From assembly GCA_903813345.2 (NCBI GenBank), contig CAIIXF020000011.1, positions 21,559,754 to 21,623,753 of the forward strand: 64,000 nt of DNA. Reading direction: 5' to 3'. Positions 40,001 to 43,000 of the stretch are shown here, in pieces (position 1 is the stretch's first letter; each line of letters opens with the position of its first letter). The translations under genes and the position numbers were made by a program. This stretch comes from Owenia fusiformis (Eukaryota > Annelida > Polychaeta > Sabellida > Oweniidae). The notes beneath the pieces are model-generated. The model ran no database searches. It saw nothing but the letters and a program-made list of their open reading frames with translations, and was not told the DNA's origin.

Positions 40001-43000
40001 AATTTTGAAATCAATATGTATTTTCAAACTAGGTTCATAGTAGCAAACTTCACCAAACAACATCAATAACTACACATAAAATATTGTTTTCAAGTACATT
40101 TAAGTTCTTAAATCCTATTAAAACAACATACACAAAACCTTATAGATATATAATCACGATCATTTATTGAAAGAATGTATGATTAACACACTACACAAAT
40201 CAACACTCAAATAGTGAGTTAATTAAATAAACAGGGCTATGGGCGTGGCAACGGGTGTGCACTGTGCCACTAATGACTTTCTCGATTTTCCCTTAGTTGG
40301 TTTCTGGTCAATTTAACCGTAAATAACCCTCCAAACGATTCTGAGCTGCACATAAGTAATGTCCTTTAGGTTAATTACTCATTTTATTTAGCATACTTTT
40401 GAAATATAACCAGGATTGTTAAAATTGAATTAACCAACAAAATTCCTAAATAAAAAGGGTGAAAAATAGGTTATACTGGAGAGTTTTTGGATGATCGAGT
40501 TGACATCAATAAAGACACAATAGATATATAAGGCCTACAGAAAAGTAAAAACGTAAGTAAGTGAGGTCAGTGGACTTACTGTTATGAATGCACAGTCTGG
40601 TGCAATAGCCGCTCCGTTTAATGTTTTTTGTAAAAACATTGGCCAATAGGATGGATTCTTGCAAAATCCTAGACGTAACAAACACAAAACAACAACTCTT
40701 ATTACTTCAATATTAACAACAAACAATTTGATAAATCATCAAGTAAAACCTGTCTGTGATAAATCCAAAATTACTTCCTCAAAGTAAAAATGTTGAAAAC
40801 ATGCAAAAATGTCTAATGCTAGGTAAAACTGCATCTTCACTATGACAATTATGACATAACATGAAGTGTTTTCAATCTTCAATGCAGACAGGTTTTACTG
40901 TTCAATCAAACATTTCACACCACCATGTCACAGGGTGAAAATAATGTAAATAGAAACAAACTTACTTATGCAACCAGTTTACATATTGGCCATTTCACAT
41001 GACTTTTTTTAAAACACATTTTATACACAAACATACATACAAAAGGTATTTTATCTAGTGCATATTCAAAGTTCATATAAAATATAAGTAACAACATAGC
41101 ATTCCTCTTAGTAAATTATTTTACTATTTTAAAATAATTTCTCCTTTTCACCAAATAACGATGACTGAGAGCAAAATGATTGCATAGTAGTAATAATACT
41201 CTGGGAAAAACATAACACAGAATACAACTCCAGCCATTTGCTTAATATCACTTACAGTGTAAAAACAATTGGGGCCAGCAAGCATGGCGCCCTCTAGTGT
41301 TCGAATCAAAAATGTTGGCCATGATGACACGTTCATCCTAAAGCCTAGAGAAAGTTGAAATCTATGATAATATCAATTACTGTACATAAAACGAACACTG
41401 TTTTATATAATAATTTACTTAATTAGTACTAAGTAAAATCTGTTCACAGTAAAACCTACTATGTGTACTCTGAACACCGCTGGGGCTACCAAAAAGTGAA
41501 CACTGAGATGTGTTCCGGATAGAGAGGTGTTCAGATAGATTTTACTATAGTTTCTTTCCCTGATCTGATCAATATTGTTTCATTAAACAGAATCAAAAAT
41601 TTACTATTTTACAATTGTTATATTTAATTCAATAGACACATACCATACATGTATCAAAATTTTGCAAACTGGATGGCATAATGATGTATCTTATTTCAAA
41701 ATTTTCATGAATAACCTACCCAAAGGAGGTTGAAGAAGTCCTCCCTTTTTCTCGCATGATCCAATTGGCTGAAGAGAATCACAATCGACCAATCTCCAGA
41801 AGTCATTTTTGTTATCACTTCCATCTAAGCGAAGTCGTAACCTTGGCCCGAGATTGCCGATAACTGTAGCGATACATGTTGATGTCAGGTTTCTGGGATC
41901 TGATGCCTCAAGTTTCATTCCTGGTTTGAACTCACATTTTGGTGGGACAAGTGCCTTAATAAATATAGTAATTGTATTAGTTTTCTCCCTCCATCTTTAC
42001 CCATATTAAAGCTAGATATTTTCTTGGTCAAATAGAGGGCTTTACTTAATGAGACTTTGTGAGTTGGCATTGTAGTGACCCTTTTTTAATATTGAAGGAT
42101 CCAAGCCCTGCGCTCAAGACTGAACCATTCTTCAAAAAGGAATTATTTCAACCTTTGCACGAGATGTGTAGCATGGAATGTGAAGTTAAGGAAGTAATGT
42201 CAGAGTGGAACCAGAACAACGGCAACGCCAAAGCGTATTGAATCCCATCGAACAGCCATGGATGGCATTTTTACAAACAAAGTATATAGCAAAAACGGCA
42301 GCCATTTTTCAAAACCTTCTACCAAAAGTGCAATTAGACAGTGTGCCATGCTTATAGTATTTACATACCAAATATAAACAAAATCGCTCCACTACTTTTC
42401 AAGTTATAGTAAAATACGTTAAAATGGCCGCTTTATAGCAAAAGTGTCATTAGACAGTGTGCCATGCTTACAGTATTCACATACCAAATATGAACAAAAT
42501 CGCTTTACTACTTTTCGAGTTATAGTAAAATACGTTAAAATGGCGGCCATTATTCAAAATGGCTGCCTTCTACCAAAAGTGTCATAGGACAGTGTGTCAT
42601 GCTTATAGTATTCACATACCAAATATGAACAAAATCGCTGCACTACTTTTCAAGTTATAGTAAAATACGTTAAAATGGTGGCCATTTTTCAAAATGGTGG
42701 CCATTTTTCACTTCTACCAAAAGTGTCTTTAGACAGTGTGCAATGTTTATAGTATTCACATACCAAATATGAAAAAATCGCTCCACTACTTTTCGAGTTA
42801 CAGCAAAAATCGTAAAATAACGAGTAAAGGCCGCCATTTTTCAAGATGGCTGCCATGTGCTTCTTTAATATCTACATTTCTAGCTTTATTAATGTCCTAT
42901 ATAATTTTTTACATCTAAAACATATTGCTATTACAGTTTTACATATTGCACCTAAATTACTGTAAATTTGGCACTAAAATGGCCGCCATTTTGAAATGAG

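What the first reader, a model, noticed from the sequence alone, without database searches (positions are those of the whole stretch)
40580..41344. Frame-locked, probably mutually exclusive exons inside the Scm MBT region
Exons 4A (41256-41344) and 4B (40580-40668) are both exactly 89 nt, enter in phase 1 and leave in phase 0, have good splice sites, and encode homologous 30-residue segments (about 13 identities, WP kept). Because 89 is not a multiple of 3, including both or neither shifts the frame; with both, 4B read in the wrong phase reaches TAA after 16 codons. So each viable mRNA must contain one. The segment bridges MBT1 and MBT2, so the choice could change methyl-lysine binding or partner choice of a Polycomb protein. 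I know of no such exon pair in vertebrate SCMH1/SCML2.
Basis: partly seen in the sequence, partly recalled or inferred. Interest (0 to 1): 0.85.

Follow-up and report, generated by a model that had tools for sequence, protein, structure and literature searches.

The report
Alternative duplicated exon in Scm gene
An invertebrate Scm-type Polycomb gene carries two anciently diverged copies of one 89-base exon, and the reading frame works only if the messenger RNA contains exactly one of them, so the animal probably makes two versions of this gene-silencing protein.

Summary
On the minus strand, exons 4A (41344-41256) and 4B (40668-40580) are each 89 nt with AG/GTAAGT borders, phase 1 in and phase 0 out. 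They encode homologous 30-residue segments (15 of 30 identical, not about 13). Including both gives TAA after 16 codons of 4B; skipping both gives a stop after 5 further codons. A profile made only from human SCMH1, human SCML2 and fly Scm finds 4A and 4B with equal strength (42.0 and 41.8 bits); the next window hit is E 0.65. Silent sites are saturated, and neutral drift of one copy to the observed divergence never kept the observed identity (0 of 20,000 runs from each exon). The gene is an Scm/SCMH1 orthologue with two MBT repeats, SLED and SAM. The duplicated exon is the N-terminal arm of MBT2, outside both Pfam MBT matches, so altered packing between repeats is likelier than an altered methyl-lysine cage. 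No U12, steric or clear docking/selector control was found; frame locking is the one exclusion mechanism visible in sequence. No RNA data or related genomes were available. This is a new member of a known kind (mutually exclusive exons).

The parts
45042..45112 (-). exon 2: MBT1 arm ([24 protein letters not shown] with the split first codon), 71 nt, phase 1 in, phase 0 out; one copy found
   Evidence: sequence; coordinates, splice borders CTAG|...|GTATGA; 44.6 bits, but this arm was itself in that profile
41720..41954 (-). exon 3: MBT1 core, 235 nt, phase 0 in, phase 1 out
   Evidence: MBT Pfam match at this place
41256..41344 (-). exon 4A: MBT2 arm, version A, 89 nt, phase 1 to 0, [30 protein letters not shown] (first codon shared with exon 3)
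   Evidence: outgroup arm profile 42.0 bits, E 6.1e-12
40580..40668 (-). exon 4B: MBT2 arm, version B, 89 nt, phase 1 to 0, [30 protein letters not shown] (first codon shared with exon 3)
   Evidence: outgroup arm profile 41.8 bits, E 7e-12
39108..39351 (-). exon 5: MBT2 core, 244 nt, phase 0 to 1, shared by both isoforms; holds the whole Pfam MBT2 match
37696..37896 (-). SLED domain coding stretch of the same gene
   Evidence: similarity to recalled SCMH1; PF12140, E 3.2e-18, on 37696-37905
34502..34594 (-). first part of the C-terminal SAM/SPM domain
   Evidence: 55% identity to recalled SCMH1; no Pfam hit for this short piece on its own
34031..34153 (-). second part of the C-terminal SAM/SPM domain
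   Evidence: (PF00536, E 1.2e-6, on 34031-34165)
40669..40728 (-). UGU-rich 3' end of the intron before 4B (8 UGU in 60 nt); candidate CELF/UNC-75-type regulatory tract, weak
   Evidence: 29 of 2010 overlapping intron windows reach it, the tract itself included; 28 of 2000 shuffles of that intron reach it

Best explanation
4A and 4B are a tandem-duplicated, frame-locked pair of mutually exclusive exons in an apparently single-copy Scm/SCMH1 orthologue. Each encodes one full version of the MBT2 N-terminal arm. Shown from sequence: homology, identical length and phase, usable splice sites, an old split with both copies constrained, and a stop codon soon after if both or neither are used. Inferred: the spliceosome joins exon 3 to one arm exon and that arm to exon 5; 'both' and 'neither' products are removed by nonsense-mediated decay; tissue- or stage-specific RNA-binding proteins set the ratio. 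The two proteins would keep the same MBT cores and methyl-lysine cage and differ in how MBT2's arm packs on MBT1, tuning inter-repeat geometry, stability or a partner surface.
For: Lengths, phases, splice sites and frame outcomes. Outgroup-only arm profile scores both copies equally, with the next window hit at E 0.65. Of 12 positions invariant in SCMH1, SCML2 and fly Scm, 4A keeps 10 (R15, E18 differ) and 4B keeps 11 (Y8 differs). Saturated silent sites (pS 0.83, dS undefined) against dN 0.55; neutral drift of one copy to the observed 44 differences kept at least 15 identities in 0 of 20,000 runs from each exon. Exon logic: both arm exons are phase 1 to 0 and both core exons phase 0 to 1. Isoform models with either exon align to SCMH1, SCML2 and Scm chains over nearly the whole length with matching spans and, in the alignments printed, no gaps. 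The frame-shift class is a known route: 377 of 629 human MXE clusters have exon lengths that make joint inclusion unproductive (PMC5740500, section 7 read).
Against: No transcript evidence: no junction was seen. No orthologous locus in another species could be compared. Taken alone, 4A against 4B is a weak genome-wide match (E 0.24 and 0.19). The neutral test puts all divergence on one copy; with only 22 changes, 5675 (from 4A) and 4178 (from 4B) of 20,000 runs kept 15 or more identities with no stop, so decay of a younger copy is argued against by the outgroup match rather than by this test. No dedicated exclusion device was found. The consequence for packing is inferred from an arm described in MBTD1, not modelled here.
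Confidence: 0.82

Rival explanations
1. Productive/unproductive switch: one exon is the normal one, and joint inclusion or double skipping is used on purpose to lower Scm level by nonsense-mediated decay.
For: Both wrong combinations give an early stop upstream of further coding stretches (with SLED and SAM stretches downstream). MXE-joining reads exist in 83 of 377 frame-shifting human clusters (PMC5740500).
Against: A poison exon need not keep a good MBT2 arm; both exons match the arm profile equally and keep 10 and 11 of 12 outgroup-invariant positions. It could coexist with mutual exclusion.
Confidence: 0.1
2. One of the two copies is a fossil exon that is no longer spliced.
For: No RNA evidence for either exon. 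Both acceptors have an AG close upstream (-19 for 4A, -29 for 4B, against -68 for exon 5), so neither acceptor is clean, and this does not single out one copy.
Against: Open frame, intact GT-AG borders with GTAAGT donors, equal fit to human and fly arms despite saturated silent divergence.
Confidence: 0.06
3. The exon pair is exclusive because of competing RNA structure (docking/selector) or splice-site incompatibility, as in Dscam or U2/U12 cases.
For: Known in other MXE clusters (PMC6071210, start of abstract in listing; PMC5740500). Imperfect inverted repeats do span the exons here, e.g. a 12-nt perfect pair around 4A (40890-40901 / 41446-41457) and a 29-nt 72% pair around both exons (40424-40452 / 41605-41633); they were not tested one by one.
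Against: No ATATCC or TCCTTAA in the three introns; the intron between the exons is 587 nt, far above the 50-bp steric limit; the best common docking duplexes (-15.0 and -15.4 kcal/mol) were equalled or beaten in 4 of 30 and 10 of 30 shuffles. Only two simple geometries in one species were tested.
Confidence: 0.1

Closest known systems
Tandem-duplicated mutually exclusive exons of the frame-shift class (WebScipio definition, PMC3228551; human landscape, PMC5740500)
   Same: Same length, same phases, compatible splice sites, homologous peptides inside a folded region, joint inclusion shifts the frame (criteria from passages and section 7).
   Different: Host gene is an Scm-type Polycomb protein; no such case for SCMH1 or SCML2 surfaced in the searches made; RNA validation missing. 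Chromatin proteins with exclusive exons are known: H2AFY and MBD1 are named in PMC5740500.
SCMH1 / SCML2 / Drosophila Scm
   Same: Two MBT repeats, SLED and SAM; against SCMH1, 58 of 79 identical in the MBT2 core and 58 of 75 in the MBT1 core; aligned to 2p0k, 2biv and 2r57.
   Different: Here the MBT2 arm is encoded twice, as alternative exons; the aligned chains each show one MBT2 arm. SCML2A, a known SCML2 isoform (abstract start of PMC4074974 in listing), was not compared with this pair.
C. elegans unc-32 exons 7a/7b (UNC-75/CELF and RBFOX control; PMC3585155)
   Same: A UGU-rich tract lies in the intron between the two exons and a UGCAUG in the intron after the second.
   Different: Here UGCAUG is at chance level (251 of 2000 shuffles have two or more) and the UGU tract is only mildly unusual (28 of 2000); the resemblance is a lead, not evidence of the same control.

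Membership tests
Mutually exclusive exon cluster (tandem duplicate type) | similar length | tested here: met
   89 and 89 nt
Mutually exclusive exon cluster (tandem duplicate type) | compatible splice sites and same reading phase | tested here: met
   GT-AG, GTAAGT donors, phase 1 to 0 both
Mutually exclusive exon cluster (tandem duplicate type) | sequence homology of the encoded peptides | tested here: met
   15 of 30 identical, 0 of 200,000 shuffles as high; both hit the outgroup arm profile; direct genome-wide cross-match weak, E 0.24 and 0.19
Mutually exclusive exon cluster (tandem duplicate type) | junction reads bridging each exon past the other, none productive with both | not testable with these tools
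   no RNA data held; frame analysis predicts both/neither unproductive
Frame-shift/NMD class of MXE | exon length not divisible by three and premature stop on joint inclusion | tested here: met
   89 mod 3 = 2; TAA after 16 codons; decay itself not tested
Steric-interference MXE | donor to branch point under 50 nt | tested here: not met
   587-nt intron between 4A and 4B; branch points were not mapped, so a distant branch point near the donor is not excluded
U2/U12-incompatible MXE | U12-type donor or branch site | tested here: not met
   no ATATCC or TCCTTAA in the three introns
Docking/selector RNA-structure MXE | one docking site pairing with a selector at each exon | tested here: inconclusive
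   two geometries: 4 of 30 and 10 of 30 shuffles as good; comparative test impossible
Scm/SCMH1/SCML2 family | two MBT repeats followed by SLED and C-terminal SAM/SPM | tested here: met
Scm/SCMH1/SCML2 family | best structural relatives are SCM proteins rather than L3MBTL/SFMBT | tested here: met
   SCMH1 319 bits, SCML2 315, Scm 298, L3MBTL3 258 for isoform A; SCMH1 316, SCML2 311, Scm 301, L3MBTL3 258 for B

The most novel reading that the evidence does not exclude
The pair is an old, regulated isoform switch of Scm, dating from around the split of animal phyla and kept since. Two alternative MBT2 arms let one gene build two Polycomb Scm proteins with the same methyl-lysine cage but different inter-repeat packing or partners, selected by tissue or stage, doing by splicing what vertebrates do with the SCMH1 and SCML2 genes.
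Probability: 0.27. Interest if true: 0.72.

Novelty: new member of a known kind. Interest (0 to 1): 0.5.

Why it matters
If both exons are used, an animal with what looks like one Scm gene makes two Scm proteins that differ only in the arm joining the two MBT repeats. That gives a clean natural experiment on what MBT arms do, with the lysine-binding core unchanged, and a concrete splicing readout that can be looked up in RNA-seq. The two arms (15 of 30 identical) are further apart than the arms of human SCMH1 and SCML2 (20 of 30), so the pair may be old and should be recognisable in related phyla. A caution: exclusive-exon clusters are gained and lost often, and human and fly share few (5 of 28 orthologous genes compared; PMC5740500, section 10).

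Tried and rejected
Third arm copy: none seen; next profile hit in the window is E 0.65. Arm duplication elsewhere: one MBT1 arm was found in window 33001-47000; in the six 9.9-kb stretches of other MBT genes (L013-L018) the profile gave only two hits of at least 13 bits, both in L015, so it is too weak there to serve as a real control. Relatives: alignment A1 in viral contigs (49 pattern matches, 0 confirmed) and genome contigs (57 pattern matches, 0 confirmed), as expected for an animal gene. Docking/selector RNA structure, U12 signals and steric limits: not supported. Inverted repeats: 17 pairs in 39200-42000; the perfect 15-nt AGTAAAACCTGTCTG pair in the 4A-4B intron belongs to a mobile-element-like motif seen 9 times in the window with up to 2 mismatches (0.14 expected); the other pairs were not tested singly. 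The 187-nt stretch holding that pair gave no second match in the genome (which has stated limits). RBFOX UGCAUG: chance level. Two structure papers (Sathyamurthy 2003, Grimm 2007; named from memory) are not held. Literature for an Scm/SCMH1/SCML2/MBT exclusive-exon pair: searches showed none in the listings, and term searches inside three papers gave 0 hits for SCMH1/SCML2 or Scm. Limits: one search listed 2 of 2, one search listed 3 of 4, 20 of 110, 20 of 130, 20 of 82, 15 of 141, 30 of 121; supplements and figures, where gene names of exon surveys may stand, were not searched.

Full report
WHAT WAS CLAIMED AND CHECKED. The finding names two 89-nt exons, 4A (41256-41344) and 4B (40580-40668), on the minus strand inside an Scm-like gene. 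The sequence was read directly and spliced in silico. Both exons are 89 nt, have AG before and GTAAGT after, enter in phase 1 and leave in phase 0. Exon 3 joined to 4A or 4B and then exon 5 gives an uninterrupted MBT1-arm-MBT2 protein. Exon 3 + 4A + 4B + 5 reads 16 codons of 4B in the wrong phase and then stops at TAA; exon 3 + 5 stops five codons after the shared glycine codon.

IS IT MORE THAN CHANCE. None of 200,000 residue shuffles of the 4B peptide reached the 4A-4B BLOSUM62 score of 68; the highest was 36. A stronger test uses no sequence from the window: a profile of the homologous segment from human SCMH1, human SCML2 and fly Scm (three sequences) was run over the six-frame open stretches (20 residues or more) of the 64-kb window. 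It hit 4A (42.0 bits, E 6.1e-12) and 4B (41.8 bits, E 7e-12); the next hit had E 0.65. Searching the whole 498-Mb assembly with either peptide at E up to 10 returned only the two exons themselves; the cross-matches alone are weak, E 0.24 and 0.19.

THE GENE. The gene is an Scm/SCMH1/SCML2 orthologue. MBT cores lie at exon 3 and exon 5; a SLED stretch at 37896-37696 (PF12140, E 3.2e-18) and a two-part SAM domain at 34594-34502 and 34153-34031 (second part PF00536, E 1.2e-6; the first part has no Pfam hit by itself) follow on the same strand. Solved-structure relatives rank SCMH1, SCML2 and fly Scm above L3MBTL and SFMBT proteins for both isoforms. The PF02820 search gave 17 matches in the assembly, two of them in this gene; the other 15 lie elsewhere, in genes whose identity was not worked out.

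WHAT THE EXON IS. Exon 2 (45112-45042, 71 nt) encodes the MBT1 arm and is phase 1 to 0; exon 3 (41954-41720, 235 nt) the MBT1 core, phase 0 to 1; 4A or 4B the MBT2 arm, phase 1 to 0; exon 5 (39351-39108, 244 nt) the MBT2 core, phase 0 to 1. So arm and core alternate as separate exons of matching phase, and only the second arm is seen doubled. The Pfam MBT2 match starts at residue 144 of the 211-residue construct, while the alternative segment is residues 101-130 (positions counted by me), and the MBT1 match ends at the exon 3 border. In MBT proteins each repeat has an extended arm that packs against the core of the preceding repeat (PMC2747274, passages read). [quoted passage not shown] From memory, not from a call, the aromatic cage residues lie in the core. 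The alternative exon therefore most likely changes packing of the two repeats or a surface, not the cage itself; this is inference.

AGE AND SELECTION. 4A and 4B agree at 46 of 90 bases (the shared first base included); differences by codon position are 13, 12 and 19 of 30; pS is 0.83 (saturated) and dN 0.55. If one copy had drifted neutrally to the observed 44 differences, none of 20,000 simulations from either starting exon kept 15 identities; with half that number of changes 5675 (from 4A) and 4178 (from 4B) of 20,000 kept 15 identities and no stop, so the test is strong only for old divergence. Independently, each copy is about as close to the human and fly arms (4A 16, 14, 14 of 30; 4B 18, 15, 15 of 30, for SCMH1, SCML2, Scm) as it is to the other (15 of 30), and human SCMH1 and SCML2 share 20 of 30. 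Of 12 positions invariant in the three outgroups 4A keeps 10 and 4B 11, failing at different positions. Both have stayed under constraint, and the duplication looks old; faster change after duplication could mimic part of this age.

HOW IT MOST LIKELY WORKS. The frame lock itself means that a full-length protein contains exactly one arm. In humans 377 of 629 exclusive-exon clusters are of this kind, and joining reads were seen in 83 of them (PMC5740500, section 7 read). I looked for an active exclusion device. There is no U12-type signal, the intron between the exons is 587 nt, and common docking duplexes were equalled or beaten in 4 of 30 and 10 of 30 shuffles for two geometries. Imperfect inverted repeats spanning one or both exons exist and were not tested one by one. 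Both arm acceptors have a near upstream AG (-19 and -29; the nearest for exon 5 is at -68). The intron before 4B ends in a UGU-rich tract (8 UGU in 60 nt; 28 of 2000 shuffles reach this) and UGCAUG occurs at 40805 and 39596, which is not unusual (251 of 2000 shuffles have two or more). In C. elegans unc-32 a UUGUUGUGUUGU stretch between two exclusive exons and a UGCAUG after the second direct the choice (PMC3585155, passages read). The layout here is similar, which gives a cheap hypothesis (a CELF-type protein restrains 4B), but the statistics are weak.

AGAINST. No RNA data were available, so splicing of either exon is unproven. No related animal genome could be searched; two collection scans found no relative. 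The species is unknown. A fossil exon or a productive/unproductive switch remain possible. Deep conservation is a guess: human and fly share homologous exclusive clusters in 5 of 28 orthologous genes compared (PMC5740500, section 10 read).

KNOWN OR NEW. The kind of thing, a tandem-duplicated frame-locked exclusive exon pair, is well known, and chromatin proteins such as H2AFY and MBD1 are among the hosts (PMC5740500). For Scm, SCMH1, SCML2 or MBT proteins no report surfaced in the listings nor by term search inside the papers; these cover open-licence main texts only, and most listings were capped. The verdict is a new member of a known kind, in a host gene for which I found no earlier case.

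Noticed in passing
window 6169-13219: A 91-bp satellite in two large arrays; by their consensus units the array at 6169-7872 and the one at 8696-13219 are in opposite orientation.
   Followed up: no
window 32361-33229: 162-bp tandem repeat, 5.4 copies at 91% match; on the plus strand one frame is open through about a whole unit at a time, and one open stretch (32789-33112) spans two units.
   Followed up: no
window 35032-35105 (-): A tRNA-Thr(TGT) gene or tRNA-derived repeat lies between the SLED and SAM coding stretches of the Scm gene, on the same strand.
   Followed up: no
window 40742-40899, 45811-45974 and others: Motif AGTAAAACCTGTCTG occurs 9 times with up to 2 mismatches (0.14 expected), twice as inverted pairs about 130 nt apart: a small mobile-element-like repeat, one copy inside the 4A-4B intron.
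   Followed up: partly
window 42323-42808: 116/135-bp tandem repeat in the intron before exon 3, with a CCGTCCGTCCGTCTG-rich stretch a few hundred bases away.
   Followed up: no
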